A stretch of 64,000 bases of DNA from positions 62,001-126,000 of the forward strand of contig CAJIZY010000003.1 in the NCBI GenBank assembly GCA_905181965.1. Direction: 5' to 3'. The notes beneath the pieces are model-generated. The model made no database searches and was not told where the DNA came from. It worked only from the letters and a program-made list of their open reading frames with translations. Position numbers and translations under genes: made by a program. This DNA is from Akkermansiaceae bacterium. Its GTDB lineage: Bacteria; Verrucomicrobiota; Verrucomicrobiia; Verrucomicrobiales; Akkermansiaceae. Position 1 is the first letter of the stretch. Each line of letters opens with the position of its first letter. Below, one piece after another: positions 33,131 to 56,434 of this stretch.

Positions 33131-33220
33131 AACAACCCCCTTTCTCCCCCATGTATTCCGCCAAACCCGGGTTTCCACGACCTTTCCTACAAAAGCAAAT
33201 TCCTAGCAGTTCAGTAGGAT
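33131..33220 (+). repeat. TTCCTAGCAG leader repeat, copy 1
   Basis: A pyrimidine-rich 5' block (CCCCCTTTCTCCCCC) is followed by a middle part and the signature AAATTCCTAGCAGTTCAGTAGG. Positions 33131-33210 match 39014-39093 at 77 of 80 positions in the same orientation. A second, isolated ATTCCTAGCA lies at 33281-33290. The ATG of the isochorismatase gene is 36 nt after the repeat. TCCTA and TAGGA at the 3' end could pair as a small hairpin. Confidence 0.85.
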
Positions 33221-33256
33221 CCCAATCCAATCGCCCCCTTCATCTCTCGCTCGCGC

Positions 33257-34135
33257 ATGAAACCGACGCCCGAAATCAAAATTCCTAGCAATAATAATCC
33301 AACGTCTGAGAATTTGGGCAAATCCACGTGGAAGCCCTTTCGATTTCGACGAATTCCGAGGGCTGTGTGCATTGCCACCTTTCTACTTGCTCTGGCATTT
33401 ACCCCCAATGCGCCAGGGAATAGTAAAGTGTTAGATCTGAAGCTGCGCGGCCTCTCGAAACCCGGCAAAGCAGAAGGGGCATGGCAGAGACACCTTGTTG
33501 AAGAACACTGGGAAGCAAAGCGGACAGCACTCGTCATCTGCGATATGTGGGACTACCACCACTCCCACAACGCGACCAAGCGCGTCGGTGAGATGGCGCC
33601 CAGGATGAACAAAGTGGTGAGCGAGATGCGCAGGCGGGGTGCCCTAGTCGTGCACGCGCCGAGCGATTGTATGGATTTTTACAAGGATCATCCCGCGAGG
33701 AAGAGAGCAATGTCCGCGCCAGTAGCAGCCAATTTCCCCAAGGACATTACTGGCTCGTGCGAGCAGATACCAGGGGAGGAAATGGATTACTACCCGATCG
33801 ATCAATCGGACGGAGGCGACGATGACGATCCGTTGATCCACCAGAAATGGGCCAATCATTTGAAGTCGATCGACCGCAATCCGAGAAGCCCATGGAAGCG
33901 CCAGATCGATGCGATTGATATCGATGGAGGAAAAGACATTATCAGCGACAAGGGGGACGAGATCTGGAACGCGATGGAGGCGCGCGGGATCGAGAATGTG
34001 ATACTCGTCGGGGTGCATACCAATATGTGTGTGCTAGGGAGACCATTTGGTCTCCGGCAGATGGCAAAGAACGGTCGCAACGTGGCGCTGATGCGGGACA
34101 TGACCGACACCATGTACAATCCGAAGATGAAACCG
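33257..34135 (+). CDS. Secreted isochorismatase-like hydrolase domain (N-terminal part of a frameshifted fusion)
   Basis: ATG 33257 is the only upstream ATG. It is followed by a repeat-like tract, so a TTG at 33315, nearer to the signal peptide (PRAVCIATFLLALAFT), is a possible real start. The domain reads ALVICDMWDYHH (catalytic Asp), then GVHTNMCVLGRPFGLRQMAKNG with the nucleophile Cys and ALMRDMTDTMYNP, all standard for secreted cysteine hydrolases of the isochorismatase superfamily in PVC bacteria. At about 34136 one base is missing. Restoring it continues as VSHYRGTDLIVEHIEKY and directly into the ThuA domain of the next entry with no stop. The joined protein would be about 1808 residues. 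The actual substrate is unknown; isochorismate is not implied. Confidence 0.8.
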
Positions 34136-34137
34136 TT

Positions 34138-37100
34138 GTATCCCACTACCGGGGAACGGATCTAATCGTTGAGCACATCGAAAAATACGTTGCCGGTACG
34201 ATCACCAGCGATCAAGTCATCGGGGGTGAGCCATTCAAGTTTAAATGGGATGTGCCGACAAAGGTGGTAATCGCAATCGCGGAACCCGAATACAAGACTT
34301 GGGAGACACTGCCTGCCCTGGCGGAGAAGATCTGGACAGAGGACAGGGGGTTCGAAGTGCAGGTAGTCATCGGAGATCCTAATAAACACACCTTGCCCGG
34401 GCTCGCTGATGCCCTGAAGGATGCGGATGTGTTGGTGTTGAGCGCGCGCCGTCAGGCACTACCGAAGGATCAGTTGGATGCGGTACGCGCGTTTCTTGCA
34501 TCCGGCAAAGGCTTGCTGGCAATCCGCACTTCCAGCCACGCATTTTTCGCACGCGGCAAAGGCCCTGAGGGGCACGCTGAGTGGCCAGAATTTGATGCCG
34601 AGGTGCTCGGCGGGAACTATGTGGGACATTACGGCGGCAAAGAGATTCCGCAGATCACGGTCGCCAAGGGCGCCGAGAAAAGACTAATTCTCGATGGGGT
34701 CAACCTTCCACATATCTCTAATGGCTCGCTGTACAAGGCTAAGCCAATAGCGAGAGATGCCGCTCCTCTACTCATCGGCACCATTGTAGGAAAGGATCCT
34801 GAGCCGGTCGCCTGGACCCGTGTCTATGGCTCCAGCAAGATTTTCTACACCTCTCTGGGGCATGTCAGCGATTTCGAACAGCCGGGATTCCTGAAGCTGA
34901 TCTGGAACGCAATGGAATGGGTGCGCACCCTGCCGAGCGACGCCCATTTGAAAAACGCAGGGAACGCTGTGGTCGAACCGTCGAAGAAGACATCTTCGGC
35001 ACCGGGCGCAAAGCCTCCGGAAGAGTCATTGCTTACACTGAAACCAGGGGCGGGCTTGGCGATCGATCTGGCGGTGGCCGATCACGAGGGCTGGACCGCC
35101 TTGCCGGTCCCCAACGCCACCGGATGGGAAACAGGAGCTGATGGGGAATTCGCAAATCACGATGGGTTCGCCTGGTACCGCGCCTATGTCAAAATCCCCA
35201 AAGAATGGCAGGGGAGCCGGCTACTCCTCATTGCCGGATCGATCGACAATGTCGACGAGGGATTCTTCAACGGTCAGCGGCTCGGTGCGAATGGATCGAT
35301 GCCACCTCTCTACAACAATCCGGCCAGCCCGATCCGGCGTCCGTTTGTGATCGAACCGGATCTCGTCCGATTTGGCGAAGTCAATCTCATCGCCTGGCGC
35401 ATCTACGACAAGGACGGCAAGGGAGGGATCATCGAAGGCCCCATCCACCTGACGCGCGCCGAAGACGCGATCGATCTAAGCGGCCAGTGGCTATTTCATG
35501 CAGGCGATGCCCCCGCATGGGCGTCCTGGTGGCACGACCCAGGCAGCGCGGACGGGAAACTCGAAGCCGAGGCGTTTTTTAATCTCGCCGGGGCGAAACA
35601 CGCTGGCCACCGGGGTCTGGTCGCTGCCGACATCGCCTATCGCGAGCGCATGATCGCCGCCGTCTACAAGCGATTCGAGGGCAACAATAATCCGTTCGCG
35701 AAGAACGATGACAAGGGCGATCCCAAAAGTCCGGAGGATTCGCTGGCGACCCTCAAGATCGCTGACGGGCTCGCGGTGGACAACGTTTTGGCAGAGCCGG
35801 TGATCACGCAGCCGCTGTATGTCGATTTCGATGAGCGCGGGCGCATGTGGGTGGCTGAGTACATTCAGTATCCCAATCCGGCAGGTTTGAAAGTACTCAC
35901 CTGGGATGCCCACTTGCGCAAGGTCTTCGACCAGGTACCGCCTCCCCCGCCCTATCAAAAGCCCGAACAACGGAAGTTCCTTGGAGCCGACATCATTAGC
36001 GTGCACGAAGATCTCGATGGCGATGGCACCTATGAAACGAGCAGGAATGTTCTCGAGGGCCTGAACATGGCGAACTCGATCGTCCGTGGTTGGGGCGGAC
36101 TCTGGGTGATGCACACTCCCTACCTCCTCTTTTATCGCGATCAAGATGGCGACGACATTCCCGAAGGAGATCCCGAAATCCGACTTGCCGGTTTTGGGCT
36201 CGAGGATACCCATAGCGTGGCCAATGGCCTTACCTGGGGGCCCGATGGCTGGCTCTACGGAGGTCAGGGCAGCACCGTCACAGCGCGCATCCGGGCGCAT
36301 CTCTCCGCGTCCGACAAACGGACCACATTCATGGGCCAGGCAATCTGGCGCTACCATCCTGAATCACACTTGTTCGAGCTGTTCGCCGAAGGTGGCTGGA
36401 ACACCTTCGGTGTCGATTTTGACGACCAGGGACGTGTCTACTCCGGAACCAACAGCAACCTGCAAGCGGTCTACTTCGTACAGGACGGGTTCTACCAAAA
36501 GGGATTCGGCAAACATGGCCCGCATACGAATCCGTATGCTTTCGGATACTTTGGCGGCCTGCCGATCAAAGGCGAAAATGTCAGGCTGGTGCACCAGTGG
36601 ATCCATTACAAGAGTGGCGCGATCCCAAGCCTCGAGGGATTGCTCGTCGGCGGGAACTCGCTCGCGAGCAAAGTCCACGCGCTGCGGATGGAACCCGATG
36701 GCAGCTCGTTCAAGACCGTCGAAGCGGCAAACCCGATCAAAACCGATCATAAATGGTTCCGCCCTGTACACTGTACGGCTGGACCGGATGGTGCGATCTA
36801 CTTTTCGGACTTTTACGATGCGCGTATCACGCATGTCGATCCGCGCGACAACTGGGACCGCGAACGCGGCCGCATCATCCGACTGCGCGCCGCCGATGCA
36901 AAACCTGGTAAGGCACCGGACCTGAGCAAGAAAACGAGCCTCGAACTTGTGAAACTATTGGCCGATCACAACCAGTGGGTACGGCGCACTGCACAACGCC
37001 TGCTGGCGGACCGCCGGGACAAATCGGTGCAGCCAGATTTGATCACCGGTCTCGTCTCGCCCGCGGGGCAACTGGCCCTGGAATCGCTCTGGGCACTCAA

Positions 37101-38682
37101 TGGAATCGGAGAATTCACCGACGCCGTCGCCCAGAAGGGAATGAAACATGCCGACCCCCATGTGCGCGCCTGGGCAGTCCGCCTGCTTGGCGATCCCCGA
37201 GCCACACTTCCCTTCGAAACCTACGAGGTGATGTCTGCACTCACTGAGAATGAGAACCACCCAGTGGTCATTTCCCAATTGGCTTCCACCGCACAGCGCC
37301 TGCCAGTGCCCCAGGCATTGCCGATCATCGGCGTGCTCACCAGCCGCGATGCCTTTGCGAGCGATTCGTTCATTCCCCAACAGATCTGGTGGGCGCTTGA
37401 ATCGGCGATCGGACGAGATGCAAAAAGTGCGCTAACTTTGCTCGATCAGGCCGAATTTTGGAACCATGCGATCTTTACTCAAGTGCTCGCCGAGCGCATC
37501 GGGCGACGCTTCATGGCCGATCGCAACGATGCCAACATGACAATCTGCGCCCAACTACTGGAACGCGCGCCTAACGCAGACACCGTCAAACACCTCCTCC
37601 GTGGGATGGAACTGGCACTGCAGGGAATGGCGATCGACTCCGTCCCAGCGGAATTTGACGCCGTGTTCAGCCGGCTCTGGAAAAAGTATCCATCAGACCA
37701 GCAACTGATCAGCTTTGCCCTGCGACTCAACAGCCAGGAAGCGCTCAAGGTTGCGCGCGCGACCATCATCGATACGTCTCGGCCGGAAGCGGAACGCGTG
37801 GGCTACATCGAGAAACTATCGCAGATGGGCGATGCCGACGCGGAACTGGCGCTACTGAAACTTGTCGGGCTGCCTGCGAAGGACGTATCGGCCCGGCTGC
37901 GCATGGCCGCTCTAAACGCGCTCCGGCGCTACAGTGGTAACGGGATCCCGGCCGCTCTGCTGGGAGCCTACGACTCGATGGAACCCGATCTCCGCCAGAC
38001 CGCACAGTCGATTCTATCTGGCCGCCCGAGCTGGGCGACGCAGTTGCTCGAGGCGGTCGACGCAGAAAAAGTCGCGCGGGAAAGCGTCACATTTGATGCC
38101 CTTTTGCTCATTCAGAGCCGCGGTGACGAAAAGGTCAAAGCCATCATCAAAAAACACTGGGGGTCGTTACGCAAGCCTGCCAAGGAAAAAGCCGCGCGCA
38201 TCGATGCGATCAAGAAACTACTGGCCGGCGATGGGGCACGCGGCGACGTCGCACGCGGGCGCACACTTTATACAGCGAGCTGTGCCGCCTGTCACAAGCT
38301 TGGAGACCTCGGGCGAGACATCGCGCCTGAACTCACAGGATACGAGCGCGGGAATCTTGACTTTCTTCTCCCGGCTATCGTCGACCCGAATCTCGGAGTT
38401 CGCGAAGAATATGAGCTCGTAACACTAACATTACGTCAAGACGATGGGGCGGAGGCCGCTGAGACAACTGCCTTGACCGGATTCGTCAGCGACGCGACCG
38501 ACCAGACGGTCACACTGAAGGACCTCGTCGGAAACAAGACCTTGATCGCGAAACGGGACATCGCCGACCAGAGCCGGGCCGCCATTTCGGTAATGCCCGA
38601 AGGTTTGCTCGATGCTCTGACCGACCAGCAGATCCGCGACTTGTTCGCGTTTCTTCAATTGAAGGATGCCACGAAGAAGTAG
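34138..38682 (+). CDS. ThuA domain, GH2-like sandwich, PVC-type dehydrogenase propeller, HEAT repeats and cytochrome c (C-terminal part of the fusion)
   Basis: Reads on from the isochorismatase domain. A ThuA-like domain (34250-34930; VLVLSARRQALPKDQLDAVR, LGGNYVGHYGG) comes first. A jelly-roll sandwich (about 35060-35500; FAWYRAYVKIPKEW, DEGFFNGQRLG) follows, like the sugar-binding domain of GH2 enzymes. The PVC-type membrane-bound-dehydrogenase propeller (about 35740-36900) has VDFDERGRMWVAEY, DLDGDGTYE and HSVANGLTWGPDGWLYGG. HEAT-like helical repeats (36930-38200) are next, then a C-terminal heme domain with CAACHKLG and LPAIVDPNLGVREEYE. PVC heme-binding CxxCH proteins normally have the last three parts; the N-terminal isochorismatase plus ThuA fusion is unusual. 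It is probably periplasmic and oxidises a polyol or sugar derivative (inference). GC content looks higher than in flanking genes. Confidence 0.82.
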   Translation, partial: VSHYRGTDLIVEHIEKYVAGTITSDQVIGGEPFKFKWDVPTKVVIAIAEPEYKTWETLPALAEKIWTEDRGFEVQVVIGDPNKHTLPGLADALKDADVLVLSARRQALPKDQLDAVRAFLASGKGLLAIRTSSHAFFARGKGPEGHAEWPEFDAEVLGGNYVGHYGGKEIPQITVAKGAEKRLILDGVNLPHISNGSLYKAKPIARDAAPLLIGTIVGKDPEPVAWTRVYGSSKIFYTSLGHVSDFEQPGFLKLIWNAMEWVRTLPSDAHLKNAGNAVVEPSKKTSSAPGAKPPEESLLTLKPGAGLAIDLAVADHEGWTALPVPNATGWETGADGEFANHDGFAWYRAYVKIPKEWQGSRLLLIAGSIDNVDEGFFNGQRLGANGSMPPLYNNPASPIRRPFVIEPDLVRFGEVNLIAWRIYDKDGKGGIIEGPIHLTRAEDAIDLSGQWLFHAGDAPAWASWWHDPGSADGKLEAEAFFNLAGAKHAGHRGLVAADIAYRERMIAAVYKRFEGNNNPFAKNDDKGDPKSPEDSLATLKIADGLAVDNVLAEPVITQPLYVDFDERGRMWVAEYIQYPNPAGLKVLTWDAHLRKVFDQVPPPPPYQKPEQRKFLGADIISVHEDLDGDGTYETSRNVLEGLNMANSIVRGWGGLWVMHTPYLLFYRDQDGDDIPEGDPEIRLAGFGLEDTHSVANGLTWGPDGWLYGGQGSTVTARIRAHLSASDKRTTFMGQAIWRYHPESHLFELFAEGGWNTFGVDFDDQGRVYSGTNSNLQAVYFVQDGFYQKGFGKHGPHTNPYAFGYFGGLPIKGENVRLVHQWIHYKSGAIPSLEGLLVGGNSLASKVHALRMEPDGSSFKTVEAANPIKTDHKWFRPVHCTAGPDGAIYFSDFYDARITHVDPRDNWDRERGRIIRLRAADAKPGKAPDLSKKTSLELVKLLADHNQWVRRTAQRLLADRRDKSVQPDLITGLVSPAGQLALESLWALNGIGEFTDAVAQKGMKHADPHVRAWAVRLLGDPRATLPFETYEVMSALTENENHPVVISQLASTAQRLPVPQALPIIGVLTSRDAFASDSFIPQQIWWALESAIGRDAKSALTLLDQAEFWNHAIFTQVLAERIGRRFMADRNDANMTICAQLLERAPNADTVKHLLRGMELALQGMAIDSVPAEFDAVFSRLWKKYPSDQQLISFALRLNSQEALKVARATIIDTSRPEAERVGYIEKLSQMGDADAELALLKLVGLPAKDVSARLRMAALNALRRYSGNGIPAALLGAYDSMEPDLRQTAQSILSGRPSWATQLLEAVDAEKVARESVTFDALLLIQSRGDEKVKAIIKKHWGSLRKPAKEKAARIDAIKKLLAGDGARGDVARGRTLYTASCAACHKLGDLGRDIAPELTGYERGNLDFLLPAIVDPNLGVREEYELVTLTLRQDDGAEAAETTALTGFVSDATDQTVTLKDLVGNKTLIAKRDIADQSRAAISVMPEGLLDALTDQQIRDLFAFLQLKDATKK

Positions 38683-38821
38683 GCTATCGGGCAGTCGTGG
38701 GTAGCACTCTGAGAGCAGTAGATCCGACGGTTGGGGGGAGACGAACAAAAAATTATCACTCACGCGAATGCGCGATAGCATGGGGGATGCCCTTGGAGCA
38801 GATTAGGACTAGGATCCCTCT

Positions 38822-39016
38822 ATGGCCAAGTTCCGTCTTTCCATGTTTCACCTGTCCAAATCCCTTAACGCCATGTTTCGTTTATCTACCTCGATCTCCA
38901 CCTATGTCCTGCTCGCCCTATTGGCCGGAGGCTCTAGCTGGGCTGTGGAGGTCGAGGAGGAGGAAGGGCCCTGGTGGTCGCTACTGCCTCTGGTGAAGCC
39001 GGCAGTTCCCGACGAC
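38822..39016 (+). pseudogene. 5' fragment of a PSD1/DUF1549-like gene cut off at a leader repeat
   Basis: From ATG 38822 or, better, ATG 38873 the frame gives a signal peptide (STYVLLALLAGGSSWAVEV) and then EEGPWWSLLPLVKPAVPDD. The last part is the typical bridge just before the NPIDxFI start of DUF1549. Homology stops exactly where leader repeat copy 2 begins (39014), and the rest of the frame is repeat sequence. No other part of the gene is found downstream. I read it as a remnant left by recombination at the repeat; the short length makes the family call moderate. Confidence 0.5.
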
Positions 39017-39140
39017 AACCCCCTTTCTCCCCCATGTATTCCGCCAAACCCGGGCTTCCGCGACCTTTCCTACAAAAGCAAATTCCTAGCAGTGTTTTGC
39101 CAAGAGAAATTTCCTAGCAGTAACAGTAATTTTCTAGCAG
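39014..39140 (+). repeat. TTCCTAGCAG leader repeat, copy 2 with triplicated tail
   Basis: 39014-39093 is 77/80 identical to copy 1. The tail signature then recurs twice more in degenerate form: AAATTTCCTAGCAGT (39107-39121) and AATTTTCTAGCAGC (39128-39141). The start codon of the C25-like gene follows after 10 nt. No copy of the gene upstream of copy 1 is present here, so only the repeat is shared. Confidence 0.85.
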
Positions 39141-39150
39141 CTTTACGATC

Positions 39151-40525
39151 ATGGAATTGAAACACGCTCTGAGGCTTGTCGGCATCGCTATTTTTTTAAC
39201 ATCGCCCGCTAAGCTGCAAGCCGACGACAGCTATGCCATAGTGGTAAGCAAGGACACCCATGCACACGCCGATTGGGCGCCAGTCGTCGAGGCGCTGCGC
39301 AGCAAGCACAGCGGTATTGTAATCGAGTACGAGAAAAATCTTTCGGAAAGCCTCCCAGCGTTACAAGCAGCGTTCCCGAAATATACCTGTATCGTCGCCA
39401 AGCCGGAAGATGCGGGACGTGCCTTCGTAGCCGCCGCCCATCAACTCACCCGTCAACTCGACGCGGATCCCTACCCCGACACCATCTGGGCCATTGTCAC
39501 AGGGTATGAATCGGCTGATGCCTTGCGCATAGCCAAGCATGCCAAACCGCTAACGGTAAAACGCGCTCTTTCCGGGACGGTCGGTTCACCTTTGGACGCC
39601 TATGAGGAAGGCGTCATGTTCAACGAACTAAAAGCCAATGCGATGTGGGAAAAAGTCTTAGGTCAAACCGTTACCCGCAAGTCCTGCCCCCAAGATACCA
39701 CCAAGCTTATTGTCGATTCGCTAAACGACTACAAACCGGACGTCTTCATCACCAGCGGTCACGCTACGGAGCGTGATTGGCAACTGGGCTTCACCTATCG
39801 CAACGGCTACTTCAAATGCAAAAATGGGCAGCTCTTTGGTCAGGATTCGTCGGGCGGACGCCATGACATCAACTCGCCCAATCCAAAGGTTCACCTGCCC
39901 GTCGGCAACTGTCTAATCGCGCACGTTTCCAATCGCGAATGCATGGCGCTGGCGCTGATGCATTCTGCCGGCGTAAATCAAATGGTGGGCTACACCATCC
40001 CCACGGGCTACGGCTACGGCGGTTGGGGCGTAAAGGACTACTTTTCGGAATTGCAGGCGGGGCGCTTTAGCCTATCGGAAGCGCATCACGCCAACCAAAT
40101 CGCCCTCAACTACAACATTGAGATGTTGGCAAAATCCGGTAAGCGCATCCACGGTCTTAGCGGCGATCGCGACGTGGTCGTGCTCTACGGCGACCCCGCT
40201 TGGGAAGCGCGTATGCCAAAACGCCAATTGCCTTGGACCCAGACCCTCAGCAAAAAAGGCGGTATCTATACCTTTACCGTTATCGCCAACCAACGCGGCG
40301 ACTGGGACAATCGGCCCGTTGTCCACCTTCTACCGAAACGCCTCACCAACGTGAAACTTCTTACCGGAGGAGAACTCAACCCCGTCATCGGCGATAATTT
40401 CATTCTCATCAAGTTTTTTAAGTATAGCTCCCATGAAGGGGAATCGCGGCGAGGCAATTCCGATCCGCGGCGACTATGAAAAAGGCCAGACCTTCACCAT
40501 CACCTTCTCGGGAGAAGTCATCTAG
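39151..40525 (+). CDS. Secreted C25/caspase-like cysteine peptidase-fold protein (frameshift near 3' end)
   Basis: Signal peptide at residues 1-24 (up to LQADD). The core resembles the gingipain/caspase fold: a first alpha/beta unit (SYAIVVSKDT, CIVAKPEDAGRAF), then VFITSGHATERDW with the candidate catalytic His (H204) and VHLPVGNCLIAHVSNREC with the candidate Cys (C254). QMVGYTIPTGYGYGGWGVKDYF follows. These features point to C25-like clan CD proteins; activity is not proven. The frame as read ends at 40479 after unrelated residues. Deleting one T from the six T at 40414-40419 gives KFLSIAPMKGNRGEAIPIRG...TFSGEVI and a stop at 40523-40525 (about 457 residues). It starts 10 nt after leader repeat copy 2. 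Confidence 0.65.
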
Positions 40526-40590
40526 TGGAACATCCTCAAACGCCACCACACCACCAAGCGCAACTTCAAGATCGAGACCATGGAGCCCAT

Positions 40591-40630
40591 AACCTCCTTT
40601 TCTCCCCTCCTCCGTTCCAGTTCTCGGAGG
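40591..40630 (+). repeat. Partial leader repeat upstream of the MscS gene, with hairpin
   Basis: AACCTCCTTTTCTCCCCTCC followed by TCCGTTCCAG matches the 5' half of the repeat copy at 42275 (CTTTCTCCACCCTCCGTTCC); the TTCCTAGCAG tail is missing. CCTCCG (40609-40614) and CGGAGG (40625-40630) can form a 6-bp stem with a 10-nt loop. It lies 50 nt upstream of the MscS start. Confidence 0.55.
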
Positions 40631-40680
40631 GAATACCATTGGAATAAAGCGAGATTTGTTGTAGGCAACATAGCACCTTA

Positions 40681-42063: not shown

Positions 42064-42440
42064 TAGTGGAGACTAGCTAAGTTCTTCTGTTGCGAGCTCG
42101 AATTACTCGTCTAGACCATATTGCCCATTTCAATGATCATGTCTTGGTTCCATACAGGATCTCAAACAAAGTTCTCAGGGCATCGTCAATACCTTCGACG
42201 CCCAAGATGCGTGATTGTGTATCAGCAGCGATCACTGGCCCCATGCCGGGGCCTTAGCAAAAACGTATCATCTACTTTCTCCACCCTCCGTTCCGGTCCA
42301 AAGGCGACATCAAGGCCCTCCCGCCATAGGAAAACTCCTAACAGTTCAGTGAAAAAACAGCGAAGACCAAGTTTGCGGTGCTGCGTCAGGCTCATTGGAA
42401 ACTCGCCTAGGCGGTCATCTTTGGCCAGTGAGGCGCTGTT
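42064..42440 (+). other. Spacer between convergent genes, containing leader repeat copy 3
   Basis: No coding sequence is supported. 42275-42351 is a diverged copy of the leader repeat: CTTTCTCC, CTCCGTTCCGGTCCAAA, GGCCCTCCCGCC, then AAACTCCTAACAGTTCAG. It is the only recognisable copy with no plus-strand gene just downstream; the next gene is on the opposite strand. This suggests either loss of the former downstream gene or that the element is not strictly a leader. Confidence 0.65.
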
Positions 42441-44572: not shown

Positions 44573-44759
44573 AATAAGAGGTTTTTAATCCGTGGCAGGT
44601 TACTTACCCAAAGCAATGATGAACTTCTCTCCATTTCGCCGGACACAGGAATGAAGAGCGCAATACGGAGATTTCATGGACACGGGCGTCTTCGCCAAGG
44701 ATGAGTCACCCCCCCTTTTTTCCTCCGCCCCCTTCAACGACGCCCTAAGGCGCTCTGGC

Positions 44760-46229: not shown

Positions 46230-46259
46230 CTTTGCCCCGTTGTATACGGTCTTAATAAG

Positions 46260-46799: not shown

Positions 46800-46938
46800 G
46801 ATTAGAAGATCACCCCAATCTCAACTCCGTCAAGAGATCAAATTGCCCTCATAACCGATGACTCCTTAGGCAGGAATAAAGTTTAATTAAGGAAATCCCG
46901 GTAGCGAATCAGAAGCACCGGAATTTAGATAACTTCCT

Positions 46939-47008
46939 CTTTCTCCCCACCAGCTCCAGTACAAATACGGCTCCATGGCCCTGCCACCAAAAGAAAAATC
47001 CTAGCAGC
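46939..47008 (+). repeat. TTCCTAGCAG leader repeat, copy 4
   Basis: CTTTCTCCCCACCAGCTCC, then ACAAATACGGCTCCATGGCC, CTGCCACCAAAAG and AAAAATCCTAGCAGC. The order and spacing of blocks match copies 1, 2 and 5 over about 70 nt. It lies 54 nt before copy 5, so two copies stand in tandem in front of the same gene. Confidence 0.75.
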
Positions 47009-47062
47009 TATCGTTGAAACGTTCCACGTCCAACCACCGTATAATTCAACTAATCCCAACCG

Positions 47063-47140: not shown

Positions 47141-47158
47141 GACCCAACTCACTCCACT

Positions 47159-49804
47159 ATGAAACCCTCTAGCTCACCCCTTGTTTTTGCTGTCGCCGTC
47201 ATGCTTATTACTGCCAACGAAAAGGCTGCAGGGCAATGGGTCGCCTATAACGATTCCGCCGATATTGATCCTGATTTGACAGCTGAAAATATCACATCGT
47301 TTGGACTTGGGCGAGGGTATCAGGGTGATGGTGGAGCAGGTGAGTTATTGGACTTTGAGACGGGAAATCCAACCGGTGTGGAAGTTAAATTTGTGGAAAT
47401 ATTTTCCACGGGTAATACCGTCAACTGGGCAGGAGATCTCTCCAGAGTCGACGAAGATTCTGATGCCGCGCTCACTTTCAGCGAGAATGTCAATCTTACC
47501 GGAAATATGAGCTACAACGATGCACCGGGTTGGTATGTCGATCTAATCATTACCGGACTCGATCCTGAACGCACCTACACGTTTGAAGGAACCGCTAATC
47601 GTGGCGGGGGGGCGTCTTATGCGGACCGGGTGACCAACTGGAGCATCTTGGAAGCCGATGACTTAGTTTATGCGAGCACACTGGCTGCCCATAAGGTCAG
47701 TGATGCTTCGGTCGAGTTTAGCACGGGGGAAAACACTGCGGGATACGTGGCACGCTGGACGGGAATTCAACCAGGGCAAGACGGAAAGATTTTGATCCGA
47801 ACAACCCATGGCATTGGGGAAGCAGCTGGCGGAATGCCGGGTGCTCATGCTTACAAGGGCTACGCTGGCGGAGCGTTTATTGTTCGCGAGGAACCTGCAG
47901 CAAGCGGGTTTGTCTGGCGCGCATTTAACGATAGCGTTATCACCGACCCTGGACTCGTGTCAGAGAACGCTACGAACTTCGGACTTGGGCGAGGGTTCGA
48001 TGGAACTGGTGAGACCGGTGAATTACTCAAGATCAATTCGGGAGATGCTACAGGCGTAACCGTTGAATTTGTCGAAAATTTCTCTACGGGTAACACGATC
48101 AACACTGCGCGTGATTTTTCTGAATTTAATCCTGAAACTGATGCCGCCATGATTTTTGGAGACCATGTCGAAGCATCTGGAAACTTAAGTTACAACGACG
48201 CGCCGGGATGGTACCTGGATCTCATTATCACTGATCTTGATCCGGAGAAAACTTACTCTTTTTCGGGAACTGTAAACCGGGCGGGAGGAGCATCCTATGC
48301 CGACCGTGTCACCAACTGGACCATTCGTGATGCAAAGGCATCCGTCTATGCCTGTTCAACCGGGGCTCACAAAGTCAGTGACACCTCGGTTGAATTCAGC
48401 ACAGGGGAGAATGGAGCTGGGTATGTGGCGCGCTGGACGGATATTCAGCCAAGCGAGGACGGCAAGGTTACGATTCGCACTAGCCATGGTGTCGGTGAAG
48501 CCAATGGGGGGCTGCCCGGCGCCCACGCCTACAAAGGCTATGGCGGTGGTGTTTTCATGTTAGGCGAGCAGTCAGGCGCATCTGTTATTCCAATTGATTC
48601 AGTCGGTGTTTTCCGACTAACTCCAGCCCCAAATTTGGAAAACGTGCATCCCAATGCGCCTGTCGAAATTGTCCTAGAGCATCGTTCCGCGGTGGTCGAT
48701 CCAGCAACGATCTTACTTTCCTTAAATGAAATCAACGTAGTGCCGGAAGTGATTGTCAGTGAAGACGAAACGATCATTCGTTTTATCCCCTCAACAATGC
48801 CGGCCGCTAACTCAACAACGAACGTAGCCCTCAAGTTCAGCGATAACTCTGAACCAGCGACCGACTATGTCCGTGAGTGGTCATTCAAGGTGACGAATTA
48901 TATCGACCAGAATTTATACGGCACGATCCCGTCATCCTGGGCAATGCCCATCGACGGTGCTCGACAACGGGGTATCGCCATGCGTGTTGCTGCTCCCAGC
49001 TTGGATGACGATGTGTTCCTCGAAACCCCCGAGGACGTAGAAGCAATATGGAATGAAACCTTCGTGAACCTCGCAGATCTCAAGGATGCGAATAGTCTCG
49101 GTTATTTCATTGAAACTGGCACCATCAACTACCAAACCGATCTCGAGCCGCGTGGCAACAAGGCTGGTGAAACCAACTTCCCAGGGATTCAAAGCAGCTT
49201 TGAACCGGGGGTTCCATTTGGCCTTGAGATCGATACATTACTCCTCCTCGATCCAGGGTTCCACTTGTTCAATTTTACTGTGCCAGGAGACTTTGAGTGC
49301 TTCATCGGTTTTGGCAGTAACAAGATAAAACTACCGCGAACCTATGCTGAGTGCACGAACTGCGGAGGGGAGGACGGCCCGTGGTTCACCGGTATTGTGA
49401 TAGAAGAGCGCGGCCTTTACCCTTTCAGAGTCATCTACCCAAACCCGGGAGGCTCTGGCAGCCTTGAGTGGTTAGAAGTTGCCCCTGATGGTCGACGCCA
49501 CTTAATCAATGCGCCGAATGAAGATTCGATCCCGGCATTCCTCCCATCGAGCATCTTTCCGGTCGGCTTGCGTGTCCTCAGTATCGAGCGCAATGGCCCC
49601 CTACTAAACTTGATGGTAGAGACCCCAGATCCATCGCTAGCTCACATCGTCGAAATGAGTACGAGTCTTGAGCCCAATTCATGGGGGCCAGCACTGATTG
49701 AGGACACTGAACAAATCACTGGCAACCTCCTGCGAATTGAGCTCGAAATACCAACCAATCCAACTGCTTTTTTTCGTGTCCGGATCGGCGCAGACGGTAA
49801 CTAG
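47159..49804 (+). CDS. Large secreted protein with two tandem beta modules and an Ig-like domain
   Basis: ATG 47159 opens a signal peptide (SSPLVFAVAVMLITANEKAAG). Two modules of about 225 residues follow, each starting W(V/R)A(Y/F)NDS and containing SYNDAPGWYxDLIIT, SYADRVTNW and GAHAYKGYxGG. Next are an SbsA-type Ig-like domain (about 450-580) and a domain with FECFIGFGSNKIKL and ECTNCGGEDGPWF. The tail is SMxTSLEPNSW...AFFRVRIG. It looks like an extracellular binding or structural protein; no catalytic motif is seen. It is preceded by two leader repeats and is convergent with the propeller gene at 49964. Confidence 0.7.
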   Translation: MKPSSSPLVFAVAVMLITANEKAAGQWVAYNDSADIDPDLTAENITSFGLGRGYQGDGGAGELLDFETGNPTGVEVKFVEIFSTGNTVNWAGDLSRVDEDSDAALTFSENVNLTGNMSYNDAPGWYVDLIITGLDPERTYTFEGTANRGGGASYADRVTNWSILEADDLVYASTLAAHKVSDASVEFSTGENTAGYVARWTGIQPGQDGKILIRTTHGIGEAAGGMPGAHAYKGYAGGAFIVREEPAASGFVWRAFNDSVITDPGLVSENATNFGLGRGFDGTGETGELLKINSGDATGVTVEFVENFSTGNTINTARDFSEFNPETDAAMIFGDHVEASGNLSYNDAPGWYLDLIITDLDPEKTYSFSGTVNRAGGASYADRVTNWTIRDAKASVYACSTGAHKVSDTSVEFSTGENGAGYVARWTDIQPSEDGKVTIRTSHGVGEANGGLPGAHAYKGYGGGVFMLGEQSGASVIPIDSVGVFRLTPAPNLENVHPNAPVEIVLEHRSAVVDPATILLSLNEINVVPEVIVSEDETIIRFIPSTMPAANSTTNVALKFSDNSEPATDYVREWSFKVTNYIDQNLYGTIPSSWAMPIDGARQRGIAMRVAAPSLDDDVFLETPEDVEAIWNETFVNLADLKDANSLGYFIETGTINYQTDLEPRGNKAGETNFPGIQSSFEPGVPFGLEIDTLLLLDPGFHLFNFTVPGDFECFIGFGSNKIKLPRTYAECTNCGGEDGPWFTGIVIEERGLYPFRVIYPNPGGSGSLEWLEVAPDGRRHLINAPNEDSIPAFLPSSIFPVGLRVLSIERNGPLLNLMVETPDPSLAHIVEMSTSLEPNSWGPALIEDTEQITGNLLRIELEIPTNPTAFFRVRIGADGN
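47237..48565 (+). repeat. Two tandem copies of a 678-bp coding module
   Basis: Unit 1 is 47237-47914 and unit 2 is 47915 to about 48565, a period of 226 codons. Long blocks are shared at both protein and DNA level (for example the stretch around GCGGACCGGGTGACCAACTGG against GCCGACCGTGTCACCAACTGG). The duplication is old enough for many synonymous and some replacement changes. It lies wholly inside the secreted protein gene. Confidence 0.85.
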
Positions 49805-49963
49805 GAGAGCGTTTACAGCGTCAGCACTGAGGTAGATACTTTCCTCATGTTAATTTTCTTTTTCAGCAGATTGCGATGGTTTCCTTTCTGTTGATTTTCG
49901 ATTGATCTATTGCGTCGCGCTCGGACCGGGTCGCAATCCGAGCGATCTCGACTCCGCTTAACC

Positions 49964-52175
49964 CTATCGAGAAACTTTCAAACGCAGGAAATTCTCCCCC
50001 CCGTTTGCCAATGGAATCGACACCCTCCGTATTTCAACTTCGGCGCGAGCCTCGAGCAATTCATCAGGCGTATCAATCCAGGTTTTCAGATCGGAACTCG
50101 CTTGGACCTGGTAGATGATATCGGTTCGATCGAGAATCTTCCGGTAAGTCAAAACCATCGACTCCCCTTCATGCCCGATTGTAACTCCGTCATCCTCTAT
50201 AATTGTTGATCTTGGATTATTACCGAACGCGTATTCGATCAAAGTCCCCATTTCCATCCCCATCCCCATCCGCAAGATCACCCCATAGTGAGGATTCTAG
50301 ATTAGGATCGGCAAGTTCTTCGATGCTGAAATGTTGATGCCGCCAGATTTCCATCGGCTCCGCATTGAAAAGAATCTTAGCAGGCCGCGGCCCCTCTTCC
50401 AATATGCCATCGCTCACCGTGACAGCGAATCTTGGGGGAGATTCCGGAGCCAGCCTCTGATAACGGAACATCGAAATATCCGTGACCCCAGAGACTCTCT
50501 CTCCGATTGTAAAATAAGCGTCAGCACTTGCCGAAAAGCAAACCGCCTCTCCTTTTGGTTCGCCTCCCGGAACGCGTGCTCCAAAAAAGGGTAACTCTTC
50601 AATAGCACTACCGGTGAGAAGGTCGGCAATAGAGACGCTCAGATCCGGACGCCGAAAATACAAAACGTGCTCGTAGTTTCGAACGATAATTTCGAGCCCA
50701 TCTCGAGAAATATCGGCAGCAGTTGTACTCACTGAAAAACCGTAAAGGCGATCGTGAATGATGGCTGGCGTCTCACCGAGATATTCCAAGGTTTGCACGC
50801 CAATATAGTTTTCCTGATGAGCGAGCCGGAACAGCCGGCCGACTGTTTCGCGCTTAGACAGAATATACACGTCCCCGTTATGTGGATCGACGATCAAAGA
50901 TTCTGCGTCGCGGCGAGCTGGAACACCGGGCACTCCAGGTCCACCTTCACCTCCCGGTGTTACGGGATATTGAAACTCAATTCTCTCGATGTCCGTTTCC
51001 GGAATAATTCCACCCCCATTGGCGACCAGAAGCGGCTCTCTAATTCGAAGAATGTTCAGGTCTGTTCTTACGGCACCGTTATCCCCAAAATCACCAATGT
51101 AGAGCAGGGGCTCGTCGTTCACCGTGGCGGCACCAATATCTTCCCAGTCATTATTAGTCGCACCAGCAAGAATCCACTCGCCTCGATTGCTTCCGTTGGT
51201 TCCCAGCGCGATCAAATTGGTCGGCTTGCCGCTATCTTGATGCGCCCACAAAATCCCCGGGTTTTGAATCGACGCGACCAATCCTGAGATTTCAGTAAGA
51301 CGCGTAGGCTCAAGAAGATTCCCCGCAACATGTCCTGCCCCAAACCGGCCCGGCTCGTAAACGAATTGAATCTCGCCATCGGTGATCTGAACCTGAGAAA
51401 AATCGGCGATCGCAACACCAGGAGCTGAAACTAACTCGAACCGCCCCGACTCAAGATCACTGATCCTAAAATCGAGCTGGCCATCATCGCTCGTAAAATC
51501 AGATGCCCTCAGTTGTTCTGGAGTGATCGCGATGATCGACTCCCCAGTCGAAGCAGCAAGCCAACTGCGCCGAATCACAGGGGCAGTCGGCCCGACGACA
51601 TCCGTCGCACGCAAATCGAAGCTCAAATCGGAGCTCCCCGGCTTGTCCTGATGCACCTCAACGGCGATGATGTTTTCTCCCGGTTTAAGCAAGAGAGGAG
51701 ATACGATGAACTCGTGAATGACAGTCTCGACCACCCCTCCCTGTGAAAGACTGGCCACCGTGTCTTTCGTGATTAACTCATCTTCCGGCATATTTGACCG
51801 CCCGACTTCCACTCCATTCACGAAGAGGACGGCCCCATCATCACGCAACAGCTCGAGTTTGATTCCCGGCAAAGCCGACGGGTCATCCACCATGAACTTA
51901 CGCCGAAAATACGTTGTGATAAACTTACTTCTCGGATTGTCACCAAACCCAACCTGAGTCGTTTCATCCTCACCATAGCCTAGCTCAGCCAATCCGCTTT
52001 TCCACGAACTGTCGTCAAAAAAATCCTGCCTCCACTCGTAACCCTGTTCGCTCCCGTCATCGAGATACTTCCACGTTGAACCAAACGGAATGAGAACTGA
52101 CTGACCACAAGCGAGACCCGTGAGTGCAATCGAAAGTGATACTAAAATAAATGAAGTGAACCCCAACAATCTCAT
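49964..52175 (-). CDS. Secreted galactose-binding-like plus propeller protein (frameshift near 3' end)
   Basis: The frame reaches 52232; ATG 52175 starts the signal peptide (MRLLGFTSFILVSLSIAL) and is preferred. Residues about 25-190 form a sandwich domain (FDDSSWKSGLAELGYGEDE, LRDDGAVLFVNGVEV, GENIIAVEVHQ) also found in the CotH protein upstream. Residues about 290-600 contain propeller-like sequence: NDWEDIGAATVNDEPLLYIGDFGDNG, DAESLIVDPHNGDVYILSKR. At DGDGDGNG the frame ends at 50220. Removing one G from GGGG (about 50249-50252) restores TLIEYAFGNNPRS and the usual tail to 49964 (NFLRLKVSR). The corrected length is about 736 residues. Function unknown. Confidence 0.68.
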
Positions 52176-52380
52176 AAGAACGAATGAACGAAGACACTTC
52201 TTCGCAGGTGAAAGCCTCTTCAGCGAATCCAAAACAACAATTTTCAGATTTTAACTTCGGACGAGATCCTCTCAGACCCCCCAAGAAAAAACCAAAGCTT
52301 CAACGGGGTGGTCCGACTCAGCTCCTTTTCTCTCCAATCAAAACCTGGGTTCCTTCCATTTCCGATTAGAAAGGAAATCA

Positions 52381-55300
52381 CTACTCCGTCAAAACGCGTA
52401 GTCGCATAAAGGATACTTTTTCCTCCTGATTATCGAAGGGTAAGACGCTTCGATATAGAACTACTGAAAGGCCATTTTCTGCTACCTCTTCAGAAACAAA
52501 TATCAGCTCACCGTCAGCCGGCTCCCAATTCTCAAGATTCCTCGACTGCTCAATGACGTAATTATCGAGCACCCCAGTGGTTATTTTCTGAACATGCAAA
52601 GTAGAGAAAGTTACCCTCTTGTTCTTCAACAATAAAATTCATAACTCCTACCTCAGGAATAGCGAACGAACTCGGATCGGCTGGATCCGTTCCCATCGCA
52701 ATTTCGACATCGTCGGGAACACTGTCTCCATCGCTATCATTCCCAACAGCAGGAGGGGCGCCTCCGATCCCAACTCCGGGAGTACCTCCAACTACTAAAC
52801 TAGCGGTCCAACTCGTAGCTTCGTTGTGATCAGAATTACTAAAAGGGCGAACAAGTTCGAGGCTGAAGCCTTGTCCATCCGCTTCCTCTGGCCATGGAGA
52901 GGCATCTTGATAGCGAAAATCTTTTATAACACTTTGAGAAAAATCGCTCAAAAGAAGATGCTCGCCATTATTATCAAGCCGCCCGCTATATGAGCCAGCC
53001 ACAGGAAGTCCGCCACCATAACGGAGTTCAAAGGCCTCCTTATTACTAACTAATAGAATCACTTCTTCTGGTCCGAGAGTCACTCTATCTGCTCCGCGAA
53101 AATCAAACCCAATTCCTGCAAGAAAAGATGACTCGAAAAGATTGACCTGTTTGCCTGCAATATTTTGGAGCTCAAGCCATTCAAAATCATCTTGATTAGT
53201 GAATCCTGCGGCTTTCTCTAATTCACTTGGTGCGGCCGGATGATACATGATCTCCGAAACCACAAGGTTAGCCTCTGAGCCGCGATCTTCGCCAACCACA
53301 AAATAAGCACTCTTGGGAGGGCTCCAGTAGATACGGCCATTCGCTTCTTCCGCCGTTCGAGAAGTGACGAGGGTCGACTTGTTTATCGGAAGGGGATTGG
53401 GAGCGAGCGTCTCATTAATATTAAGCTCTGGAAGAATGAAAAAGTCAGAGCCCCCCGGGGAAGTATTCATCCCTTGAATCGCGAGCACATTACGACCTTC
53501 ACGAACGATTTCCGATCCATTAGCAACACTGAAATCCTCGAAAATAATCGCCTCACTATCCTTATGAGATCTCGTTGCCCGAGAATTCCATGCCAGCGTT
53601 TCTGGAGCATTAGCACGAGCAATTTCGACCCCATTGAGATAAGCTGCGAATCCATCATCATACTTCATTTTAAGCGTCACCGCATTGACGTTTGAGGCCT
53701 TGTTATTGAAGTTGAATTCGACCCTAGCATAAACACTCGAGTTCACGTACCGCATCTCGCTCTGTATATTTGTGTTGATTAAATCGAGGGCTGGCCCGTT
53801 GGTTTCAAATCCCATCGCGGTTGCACCAGAAGCCCAAGAAGAATCATCAAAATCAAATGTGCTCCAACCATTACCAAGAGAGTCATCCAAAGGTATTAAG
53901 TGTTTACTCGGAACAAACGAGGCAACGTAATTATTGGTGAATTGACCACCAGGAAAAAGCTCGCCAGCTACAACGCCATTAAAGTCACGCGGATCCGTTC
54001 CGTCTAATGTGTAAAAGACCGACCCCTTAGGTGATGACATCGCGAGTTCAAAACCTTCCTCCACAATTCCACCTTCCCGATTCATGGTCGCCTCAGGAAG
54101 CCATTGCCGGTCCATAAATTTAACGCGCTCTCTCAACCATCCCTTGAGGTGCTCAACTTCACCTTCCCAACCTCTATCGCCATTGGAGTAACGCCCCCCA
54201 TTCGGAGGCCTAGTCGACCAGCGAAGGAAGTTTCGCGACTGAGCTTCCCTGATCTGAGAAGCCATCCCATCGATGATACTGTTAAAACTTTCTTCTGAAA
54301 AATGCGTCTTCCGGAGACTAAAATAGCGGTCGATATAGGCTTGGTTGAAATCGGGATCACCTCTATCGCTCGCAAGCGGAGGGGCTCCATTCACACCAGG
54401 TTTCCAAATCAGATTATTCCACCAAGGATAAGCCCAAAAATCATTATTAGAAAAAGAGCTCGGAACCCCTGAACGGCTATCCGAATCACAGCCCAGGCAA
54501 CGATCAAAGTCCCAGACGGGGCCATAATGAACCTTTCCTCCGCGAGGTTTAAACAAATAAGTGCTTAAGCGCAAAGCATCGGGATCTTTTGAAAGGATTC
54601 GTAACAAGTGCTCATCCAACCAACTTCCCACATCGATATACTCAGAATAATGTTTTCCAGTTGCGGTATTAACGTAGTCAGGGAAATTACGGATAGCTCC
54701 ATTGAATTCATTGAGATAGTTTCCAAGATATTCCGCTTGGGCATCGGTAACATTCTCTTCTTTTGGATAAATCCATCCTAGGGACCCCATACCCTGAACC
54801 CTGAGACCTCGATCCCCAGGATCGAGTCGATCTTTCTTAAACATGAAGCCTCCTGTGATTGCGGGCTCAGTCGTGTCGGATGGAGAGAGGCGCTCAACAT
54901 CAACGCGATTAGGATCCCTCTTAACTTTTTCAATGAGAGAGTAAACTCCCATATAGTCTTCTGCTTCAAGAACCCCATCATCCGTATTCGAGAAAACTTC
55001 CACAAATCGTGTCCGCGGCGCATAACGACCAATCCTGCGACTCAGCTCATACATGAAGGGGTTACGCATCAGCGCACGATCAAAATCCCAGCGCCCGCTT
55101 AGCACCCAATCAGACTGGGCCGGCATTCCCAGCACGCTCAAATCACGATCTTCATCCACCTCGTCGCGAAACTCCACCGCAAGAGAATACTTTGCCCAAG
55201 AACCCGTGGAAGACCCGCGTTGCCGCATGTTACCCCGGGTTTCCAAGTCAGGCTTATTTCTTACCGACGCCCGCTTCTCCTCACCTTCACCTTTCGGCTC

Positions 55301-56269
55301 ATAAACAGAAATGTGCATATCGCGATTACTACTCGGTCGCCCTCTATCAAAATTGTCGAGAACAACAATGGGGAGATCTGAAGTGAAATCCCGAATGGGC
55401 GCGCCTATGTAACGCTCAGAGTTAGTGACATTCTCCTCCTGCAGATAAATATAGGTGGCACTCAGCGTCTCTCCCAATGTTCCATCCACATCAATGATCC
55501 TAGCCCTTACTTGCAAAGTCCTATCGGAAGACTTCTGAACTGATATAGAATTTTGATAAATTGGACTATCCTCATTAGGTTCTGGAGTGGCCCCACTACT
55601 ACTGATGTTAGTTTCAAAATGAATCGCCTGACCCGGCCCGGCTCCCGATAGGACCAAGTTAAAAGCTTCCGTGAAAGTCTGGCTAGAATGAGAAAAATTA
55701 ACGAGAGGAATAGGATTCTGAAAAGACGCTCCATTCATTACCCCGGGACTCGGAGGAGAGAAATACCCCTCAGTCCCTCCAGCATCCGATTCTTTAAATC
55801 CGTATGAGATATCTGTGAACTGTTTAGGAAAGAAAGGAGCAAATTCTTGGATTACAGTGAGTCCGTCTTTACCGACCAAAGCAAGATATTCCCCATCCGT
55901 CGTAAGTTTAAAATTAGTGTGTAAATTTCCTCCTGGGTTTGATCGGCGCTTTTCGGAGGCAAATACGATCATCGCTTTACCAGCAGCTAACTGCACTGCC
56001 GGGAAAGACCACTTAACTAAATTATCGGACTTATCAGTGAGGTAGTATCCGGCAAGATTAAGAGGATTATTGCTTGGGTTATAGATTTCTATCCAATCAA
56101 CATAATCATTATCTTCGTCCTGAAGGACCGTTGAGTTAGAGGCCGAGAATTCAGAAATGATCGGATGAGAAAAGGAAACCTGACTAAGACAACAAATACT
56201 TAGAAAAGTTATTAGAAAAGATTTATAGCGATTCGAAATACGCACAAAGCGTAAGATTTTCTCCGTCAT
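52381..56269 (-). CDS. CotH-like protein with lamin-tail domains (frameshift near 3' end)
   Basis: ATG 56269 has a GAGG 4 nt upstream and is preferred over ATG 56284. Signal segment (SFLITFLSICCLSQVSFS), then a first lamin-tail domain (ISEFSASNSTVLQDEDNDYVDWIEIYN), a chitobiase-like sandwich, and a CotH kinase-like domain (about 330-680). The CotH region shows RGNMRQRGSSTGSWAKYSL, LSGRWDFDRALMRNPFMYEL and HYGPVWDFDRCLG. A galactose-binding-like domain and a second lamin-tail domain (NLVVSEIMYHPAAPSE) follow, then DSDGDSVPDDVEIAMGTDP. The frame ends at 52562 in unrelated residues. Removing one G at about 52617-52620 gives VTFSTLHVQKITTGVLD and a normal tail to 52381 (MRLRVLTE). About 1295 residues. 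CotH enzymes phosphorylate proteins in spores, but activity here is not shown. Confidence 0.75.
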
Positions 56270-56365
56270 TGGACCTCGAAGCATGTAAGGTTTCCCGCAG
56301 GAATCAATGAAGTAAGTATTTAAAACTCTAAACTATCTTCCGACTGAGAAGGGGCGGTAGAAATT

Positions 56366-56434
56366 CTTCTTCCTAATCCGCTCCAGCCCAAAAATGGCTT
56401 CACTCTTCTTCCACCAAAAGTAAATTCCTAGCAG
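56366..56434 (+). repeat. TTCCTAGCAG leader repeat, copy 6
   Basis: CTTCTTCCTAATCCGCTCCAG, then CCCAAAAATGGCTTCACTC, TTCCACCAAAAG and TAAATTCCTAGCAGCC. The block order is the same as in copies 4 and 5. It lies in the divergent spacer between the CotH gene (minus) and the oxidoreductase gene (plus), 50 nt before the latter's start. Confidence 0.7.

What the first reader, a model, noticed from the sequence alone, without database searches (positions are those of the whole stretch)
33131..56434. Dispersed intergenic repeat family ending in TTCCTAGCAG placed just before start codons
Copies at 33131, 39014, 42275, 46939, 47063 and 56366, a half copy at 40591 and a possible tail at 1053 share ordered blocks: pyrimidine-rich CTTTCTCC, CTCCGGTCCAAATAC, CCATGGCCCTCCCGCC, then AAATTCCTAGCAGTTCAGTAGG. 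All are on the plus strand. Full copies 1, 2, 5 and 6 end 10-50 nt before the start of an exported-protein gene, and the half copy precedes MscS. The 3' tail can form a TTCCTA/TAGGAA hairpin. This is not a known feature class to me; candidates are a leader RNA element, a non-autonomous mobile element, or a recombination site.
Basis: seen in the sequence. Interest (0 to 1): 0.75.

Follow-up and report, generated by a model that had tools for sequence, protein, structure and literature searches.

The report
Repeats marking shuffled bacterial gene cassettes
An 80-letter repeat found in many environmental relatives of Akkermansia sits at joints where whole genes are rearranged between genomes, looking like an integron but without an integron's enzyme or folded sites; how it works is still unknown.

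Summary
The repeat family is real. The window holds six near-complete ~80-nt copies, all on the plus strand, plus fragments. The element occurs in 68 of 288 sampled genomes of the order, 24 of 50 genera, with 27, 50 and 100 matches in three genomes. It is not a leader: of 92 downstream genes 56 lie on its strand and 36 on the other, and no fold is conserved. Elements form co-oriented arrays (109 of 118 neighbouring pairs, median spacing 2.3 kb) that divide gene modules. Blocks shared between genomes often end at the element's ...CCTAGCAG terminus: 32 ends against 0.4 expected. Modules are reordered, inserted or missing between genomes. Orientation follows GC skew on 22 of 23 contigs scored, but not in the one single-contig genome examined, which has few copies. 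attC features are lacking; integron integrase, serine recombinase, reverse transcriptase and Y1 transposase do not track it. Best reading: recombination site of an integrase-less, integron-like cassette system. Homologous recombination between the repeats remains a strong rival, supported.

The parts
33132..33211 (+). full element, copy 1; 97% identical to copy 2 over 79 nt
   Evidence: R1 71.5 bits, E 3.9e-21; D5
39015..39094 (+). full element, copy 2; its CAG end is joined to an internal piece of another element
   Evidence: junction compared with L252 and L253
39099..39123 (+). 3' fragment of another element, which is longer in G038 and G020
   Evidence: R1 16.7 bits, E 4.6e-4
39125..39141 (+). 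second short 3' fragment (weak)
   Evidence: R1 5.1 bits, E 2
42272..42346 (+). full element, copy 3, between convergent genes
   Evidence: R1 55.8 bits; ORFs
46933..47009 (+). full element, copy 4; blocks shared with G015 and G004 end at its CAG
   Evidence: R1 55.3 bits
47057..47131 (+). full element, copy 5
   Evidence: R1 48 bits
56365..56437 (+). element, copy 6, between divergent genes
   Evidence: R1 49.8 bits; ORFs
32798..32819 (+). 5'-block remnant (CAACCCCCTTTCGCCCCC)
   Evidence: BLAST match (E 0.02), sequence
40591..40620 (+). 5'-half remnant; before the same MscS gene G009 and G017 have elements with an intact 3' end
44707..44755 (+). 5' part of an element, by inspection, at a breakpoint between blocks shared with G015:C2 and G015:C40
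33279..33290 (+). possible bare core (AATTCCTAGCAA), weak
   Evidence: R1 6.5 bits, E 0.75
33257..38682 (+). module 1: isochorismatase-like ORF and ThuA/DUF7133/cytochrome c ORF
39151..42063 (+). module 2: 442-aa ORF without Pfam match and MscS channel; 95% identical block in G038 from query position 94 to 3327 (window = query + 38999)
42441..44572 (-). module 3: DUF5690 protein and methyltransferase
44760..46799 (-). module 4: sulfatase and glutathione peroxidase
47159..56284 (.). module 5: 881-aa ORF (+), cadherin-like ORF (-), CotH/lamin-tail ORF (-)
56446..58882 (+). genes behind copy 6: GFO/IDH/MocA oxidoreductase and 306-aa ORF

Best explanation
The element is the recombination site of an integron-like gene-cassette system that does not use the integron integrase. 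Shown: genes lie in co-oriented arrays with an element every ~2 kb (median); modules are reordered, inserted and lost between related genomes; shared blocks end at the ...CCTAGCAG terminus far more often than chance; in the genus the arrays have a largely fixed orientation to replication. Inferred: an unidentified enzyme recognises the conserved 3' block (CCAAAAGCAAATTCCTAGCAG) and cuts or joins DNA at the CAG|pyrimidine point. It would act mainly on the G-rich strand, which by the skew rule lies in the lagging-strand template, so that [gene(s) + element] is released and re-joined behind another element's CAG end. Which enzyme does this, a strand-specific (HUH-like) nuclease, the host XerC/XerD pair or something unknown, is not shown.
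For: (136 loci, 38 genomes, 322 elements, 560 block ends): right-hand ends within 3 nt of CAG 32, control mean 0.43 (max 4 in 400 shifts); left-hand ends at -1..+5, 11 against 0.53 (max 6). L260 (G002) and L193 (G015) carry modules A-B-C and B-A-C, B together with its downstream element. L026 is an empty site; L257 has 2.1 kb inserted exactly behind CAG, ending in a second AATTTCCTAGCAG (the insert also holds an inverted full element); four blocks of the window array lie in the same order in G020:C306, the last three directly adjacent, with the intervening window DNA missing; skew polarity on 22 of 23 contigs scored; first base after CAG is T or C in 92% of 147 unique copies; a second core (up to 2 substitutions) within 60 nt after CAG in 11 of 147, against 2 of 147 in the upstream window; 109 of 118 neighbours co-oriented.
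Against:: where only the downstream gene is shared, the element is usually shared too (middle identity at least 0.73 in 8 of 10 pairs, mean 0.79; 0.78 for the 19 upstream-shared pairs, 0.63 for random pairs), so the one-sided unit gene+element is not clean. The invariant 3' block draws alignments to CAG wherever a crossover fell inside the element. No enzyme was found. G243, a one-contig genome of another genus, shows no polarity, and G004:C166 contradicts it. Several junctions carry no element (the A/B and A/C joints in L260 and L193; E4). Block ends are counted from both partners and some loci overlap (27 distinct right positions).
Confidence: 0.5

Rival explanations
1. No dedicated enzyme: the elements are dispersed direct repeats, and homologous recombination or template switching at stalled forks between them reshuffles the genes. 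The breakpoints look sharp because the two conserved blocks end sharply.
For: No recombinase tracks the element; elements are retained on either side of breakpoints; a breakpoint at 44707 lies in the 5' block at homologous positions of two elements; some neighbouring copies are near-identical (copies 1 and 2; L036, L068).
Against: Joins at non-homologous positions: the CAG end of copy 2 joined to a point 28 nt before the end of another element, and the 13-nt core flanking the 2.1-kb insertion in L257. The conserved blocks are short (about 18 and 21-24 nt). It does not by itself explain polarity over many contigs.
Confidence: 0.27
2. A non-autonomous mobile element that inserts by itself with a bias for one strand of the replication fork; gene shuffling is a by-product.
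For: Sharp edges with random flanks, many similar copies, replication polarity, pyrimidine/TCA preference behind the CAG end, 3'-anchored tandem fragments.
Against: Copies are clustered in arrays; no clean gain of an element alone among 349 element queries against the fetched loci, the single candidate being a 5' remnant; no terminal inverted repeats by eye; Y1 transposase absent from G000, G002, G004, G005, G009 and G014; no transposase evident by eye among the 25 most widespread of the protein clusters formed from 932 proteins near elements.
Confidence: 0.15
3. A cluster of attC sites lacking integrase (CALIN) of a classical integron, with unusual attC sequences.
For: Co-oriented array of gene modules with a site of similar size to attC (size recalled); classical integrase genes exist in the genus and order, and G003, G022, G029 and G031 have both an integrase above cut-off and exact element matches.
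Against: Of 134 unique copies 2 have the first core box, 2 the second, none both; bottom-strand folds have mean z +0.29 (40 of the 134 sampled), while six attC-like repeats beside the integrase of G028 have z -1.7 to -3.9; no element in 10 fetched integrase regions; ten copy-rich genomes (G002, G004, G005, G006, G009, G014, G015, G017, G018, G020) have no integrase above cut-off, while G001, G010, G013 and G019 have one and no exact element match (G010 has one R1 match).
Confidence: 0.03
4. A cis-regulatory leader RNA or promoter element of exported-protein genes.
For: Four of six window copies lie shortly before start codons.
Against: 36 of 92 downstream genes are on the opposite strand; no Rfam match at gathering score; no covariation or stable fold.
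Confidence: 0.03

Closest known systems
Integron gene-cassette arrays (IntI/attC), including CALINs
   Same: Co-oriented array of sites separated by one or a few genes; block boundary at the 3' end of the site; a relation to replication direction.
   Different: No attC core boxes, no foldable bottom strand, no IntI in the copy-rich genomes listed; median spacing 2.3 kb with genes on both strands; arrays on many contigs share one polarity. In integrons the bottom strand of attC lay on the leading-strand template in all 10 sedentary chromosomal integrons first analysed, while a later set of 30 included both orientations (PMC5371416, passages read); here, by the skew rule, the G-rich bottom strand lies on the lagging-strand template.
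IS200/IS605-type and other HUH single-strand transposition (PATEs, REP/RAYT)
   Same: Short non-coding ends, preference for one replication strand, a short preferred flank beside one end.
   Different: No hairpin ends, no Y1 transposase in six of the copy-rich genomes tested, genes between copies. That IS608 and ISDra2 target the lagging-strand template is from the abstract start of PMC6006769 (listing).
pdif modules (XerC/XerD sites around single genes on Acinetobacter plasmids; recalled)
   Same: Genes bounded by short sites without a dedicated recombinase; two strong Phage_integrase matches (E 1.2e-43 or better, 298-430 aa) in each of G002, G004, G006 and G015 could be XerC and XerD.
   Different: pdif sites are 28 bp and alternate in orientation (recalled); here ~80 nt and co-oriented. 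Resemblance to dif was not tested.
MITEs / dispersed intergenic repeats
   Same: Short, non-coding, multi-copy, sharp edges.
   Different: No terminal inverted repeats by eye, strong co-orientation, association with block ends.

Membership tests
Integron cassette site (attC) | RYYYAAC and GTTRRRY core boxes (motifs recalled) | tested here: not met
   both in 0 of 134 unique copies in either orientation; 2 have the first and 2 the second
Integron cassette site (attC) | bottom strand folds into a hairpin | tested here: not met
   mean z +0.29 over 40 sampled of 134 copies, against -1.7 to -3.9 for six G028 control repeats, simple shuffles; five copies with dinucleotide shuffles, z -1.24 to +1.44
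Integron cassette site (attC) | integron integrase in the genome | tested here: not met
   not above cut-off in ten copy-rich genomes; G003, G022, G029, G031 have both
Integron cassette site (attC) | co-oriented array of mobile modules with a boundary at the 3' end of the site | tested here: met
   with the caveat
Integron cassette site (attC) | excised circular cassettes | not testable with these tools
   no reads available
REP/RAYT | palindromic unit with a conserved fold | tested here: not met
REP/RAYT | Y1 transposase gene | tested here: not met
   none in G000, G002, G004, G005, G009, G014; G003 and G006 have weak partial matches over cut-off; G015, G017, G018, G020, G038 were not in that search
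IS91/Helitron-like (Y2 HUH) end | Y2 transposase gene | not tested
IS110/IS1111 target or end | DEDD transposase in copy-rich genomes | not tested
MITE | terminal inverted repeats and target-site duplication | tested here: inconclusive
   no inverted termini seen by eye in A2 and A3; one insertion flanked by 13-14-nt direct copies can be read as a duplication
Retroelement (target-primed) | reverse transcriptase in copy-rich genomes | tested here: not met
   RVT_1 in 1 of 10 copy-rich genomes tested (G006, 110-aa frame)
Serine-recombinase site | serine recombinase in copy-rich genomes | tested here: not met
   1 of 12 genomes, G020
Leader RNA / riboswitch | conserved structure upstream of genes on the same strand | tested here: not met

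The most novel reading that the evidence does not exclude
A new class of chromosomal gene-cassette system: unstructured ~80-nt sites, cut on one strand at CAG|Y when the G-rich strand is single-stranded in the lagging-strand template, driven by an enzyme unrelated to IntI, which lets these Verrucomicrobiota trade sulfatases and other genes as cassettes.
Probability: 0.35. Interest if true: 0.92.

Novelty: new variant of a known kind. Interest (0 to 1): 0.76.

Why it matters
Integrons are the textbook way for bacteria to collect and shuffle single genes. A second system with unfolded sites, no IntI and a relation to replication would suggest that cassette arrays evolved more than once. It could also explain how these Verrucomicrobiota rearrange sulfatase genes: sulfatases lie in the arrays by Pfam (window; L189), and the most widespread protein cluster near elements (41 proteins, 16 genomes, single linkage) has a representative that reads like a sulfatase by eye. 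Several listed copies lie within 60 nt of a contig end, which fits repeats breaking short-read assemblies, so arrays may be under-counted.

Tried and rejected
Leader RNA; attC/CALIN; RAYT/Y1; serine recombinase; reverse transcriptase. Tyrosine recombinases: P0001, behind the last element of G015:C8, sits next to a tRNA-like sequence (by eye) and gives only sub-threshold or borderline matches (Phage_integrase 22 bits, not over cut-off; SAM-like domain 27.7 bits against 27), so it looks like a broken island integrase. G015:C14 has a 375-aa Phage_integrase match (64152-64631) between elements at 61698 and 65075, and G015:C71 a fragment near an element; both were left unfollowed because G004 has only two Phage_integrase matches. 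Element-only presence/absence: one candidate in 349 queries, a remnant. One copy (L010) searched in the plasmid and phage collections: no match; one viral contig by pattern. A strict one-sided cassette model is weakened. Literature: searches listed no paper on this repeat, judged by titles and abstract starts; the library holds open-licence papers only.
Full report
WHAT IS THERE. The window lies in a 2.64-Mb, 61.6%-complete draft genome (G000:C3:62001-126000). A profile of the repeat (R1, 84 positions, sequence only) finds six near-complete copies in the window, all plus strand, and weak fragments; those six copies were among the 47 sequences used to build R1. Aligned on their 3' end, 107 unique copies are conserved from about -77 (CAACCCCC...) to +2, with random flanks on both sides, so the element has sharp edges. 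The 3' block CCAAAAGCAAATTCCTAGCAG was fixed by the search pattern in that call, but it is also the best-conserved part of alignments A2 and A3. The middle comes in several subfamilies, and some copies have a different 5' half.

DISTRIBUTION. Most titles are Akkermansiaceae, Verrucomicrobiales or Verrucomicrobiota drafts, with Luteolibacter, Roseibacillus, Haloferula, Prosthecobacter, Opitutaceae and a draft labelled Akkermansia muciniphila; three name other groups (Deltaproteobacteria, Halioglobus, Mariniblastus) and may be misbinned. In the order, 68 of 288 sampled genomes and 24 of 50 genera have a match at E 1e-6 or better, with strict filters. At E 0.1 there are 27 matches in G000, 100 in G015 and 50 in G002. 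One copy found no match in the plasmid and phage collections at E 0.01; the pattern hit one viral contig.

ARRAYS. In 41 fetched stretches including the window, 109 of 118 neighbouring elements have the same orientation, median spacing 2.3 kb (hits less than 60 nt apart merged). Of 61 loci with two or more elements 55 are uniform (some loci overlap). Gene strand is mixed: of 92 elements scored 22 bits or more with a gene on both sides, the downstream gene is on the element's strand in 56 and opposite in 36 (ORFs picked by length). In the window copy 3 sits between convergent genes and copies 4 and 6 follow divergent minus-strand genes.

MODULE EXCHANGE. A 19.9-kb query of the window array against 27 genus genomes, the own included, gave blocks of up to 96% identity. 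Several end at elements: G038:C73 matches from the CAG end of copy 2 into copy 3; G015:C40 and G004:C156 end at the CAG of copy 4. G020:C306 carries four blocks in the same order; 1.4 kb of other DNA follows the first and the other three are adjacent, and two of these joints carry no element in the window. The region left of the array is about 90% identical and syntenic with G015 over 8.8 kb, so the shared array blocks do not prove recent transfer between those two; they show rearrangement. In G002 and G015 modules A, B and C occur as A-B-C and B-A-C, B with its element; the A/C joint in G015 and the A/B joint in G002 carry no element. L026 against L257 is an empty and a filled site: 2.1 kb lies exactly behind CAG and ends with a second AATTTCCTAGCAG. 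In the window, the CAG end of copy 2 is joined to the last 28 nt of an element that is longer in G038 and G020.

STATISTICS OF BREAKPOINTS. Over 136 loci from 38 genomes (322 elements with a 3' part, 560 ends of cross-genome alignments of at least 300 nt and at most 99.5% identity, ends within 30 nt of a locus end dropped), 32 right-hand ends fall within 3 nt of CAG; shifting the anchors 400 times gives a mean of 0.43 and a maximum of 4. Left-hand ends at -1 to +5: 11, against 0.53 (maximum 6). Most of the 560 ends lie elsewhere. Ends are counted from both partners and some loci overlap, and the invariant 3' block draws alignments to CAG. In one search the variable middle of near-complete elements was compared: 19 pairs sharing the upstream gene have mean identity 0.78, 10 pairs sharing the downstream gene 0.79, random cross-genome pairs 0.63 (sd 0.11); a few pairs are the same place seen in two overlapping loci. 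So the element is often kept on either side, which weakens a strict gene-plus-downstream-site unit and keeps homologous recombination in play.

REPLICATION POLARITY. In stretches of the same contigs away from the arrays, GC skew read on the element's C-rich strand is negative in 21 of 21 stretches on 11 contigs of G000, G002 and G015, independent of gene strand. The contigs were chosen for length, not all were sampled, and the dominant element orientation was used: G000:C5 and G015:C4 also hold minority copies the other way, and G002:C43, which is mixed, was not sampled. On 12 further contigs with one orientation in G006, G022, G009, G004, G262 and G015, 11 agree; G004:C166 disagrees, and two mixed contigs (G009:C199, G004:C4) were not scored. 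Together 22 of 23. In 112 loci around elements 85 have negative and 27 positive skew. The one-contig genome G243 shows no polarity: of seven matches below 1e-5 four are against, one for, two in regions of unclear skew (my reading). There the single 16S gene lies on the plus strand where skew is positive, as expected if the leading strand is G-rich. With that rule, the fork meets the CAG end first and the G-rich strand is the lagging-strand template.

STRUCTURE AND PARTNERS. Alifold gave no consensus pairs on the plus strand and one 6-pair stem on the minus strand; the 30 column pairs of highest corrected mutual information are mostly not complementary. DNA folds are no more stable than shuffles. 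Integron integrase, Y1 transposase, serine recombinase and reverse transcriptase do not track the element, with the exceptions named in the membership table. G004 has two Phage_integrase matches. Among the 25 most widespread clusters of 932 proteins within 2.5 kb of elements none looks like a recombinase by its printed sequence start. Y2 HUH and DEDD families were not searched.

READING. The least that is shown: a repeat with fixed edges that marks many joints between gene modules and in this genus mostly keeps one orientation to replication. The most likely mechanism, partly inferred: strand-specific recombination at CAG|Y by an unidentified enzyme. An attractive but unproven detail is that tandem cores behind CAG (11 of 147 copies, 2 of 147 in the upstream window, up to 2 substitutions), TCAGT tails (21 of 147 in the 16 nt behind CAG, 2 of 147 30 nt further) and variable left joins resemble one-ended, single-strand transposition. 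The profile favours 3' ends, so the excess of 5'-truncated over 3'-truncated copies (34 against 10 of 153 hits) is not strong evidence.

LITERATURE. Seven searches listed no paper describing this repeat, judged by titles and abstract starts. For integrons I saw passages of PMC5371416, PMC8618304 and PMC8946536; for IS608/HUH only the abstract start of PMC6006769.

Noticed in passing
window 32452-32724: 119-bp tandem duplication, 94% identical, at the 3' end of the metallophosphoesterase gene.
   Followed up: no
L189:14740-16063 (G015:C8): A tRNA-like sequence (by eye) followed by a tyrosine recombinase with weak, incomplete matches, directly behind the last element of an 80-kb array.
   Followed up: partly
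G015:C14:61698-65075: A 375-aa Phage_integrase match (64152-64631) lies between two elements; a possible partner in that genome.
   Followed up: no
L278 (G028:C1, about 2,267,000): An integron integrase above cut-off with an array of ~110-bp attC-like repeats in a related genome; used as a control.
   Followed up: partly
L306:1101-1121: One element on a 4.2-kb contig filed as viral, which has a frame that looks like a terminase small subunit by eye.
   Followed up: partly
window 1053-1064: CAGTCAGTAGGA, shared with the flank of copy 5, without an element upstream; could be an empty target site.
   Followed up: partly
L044 near 2600 (minus strand); L016, L022, L090: A bare core inside an element in L044, and elements with an alternative 5' half CTTCGCCAAGGCT...GGCCGGTCC.
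   Followed up: no
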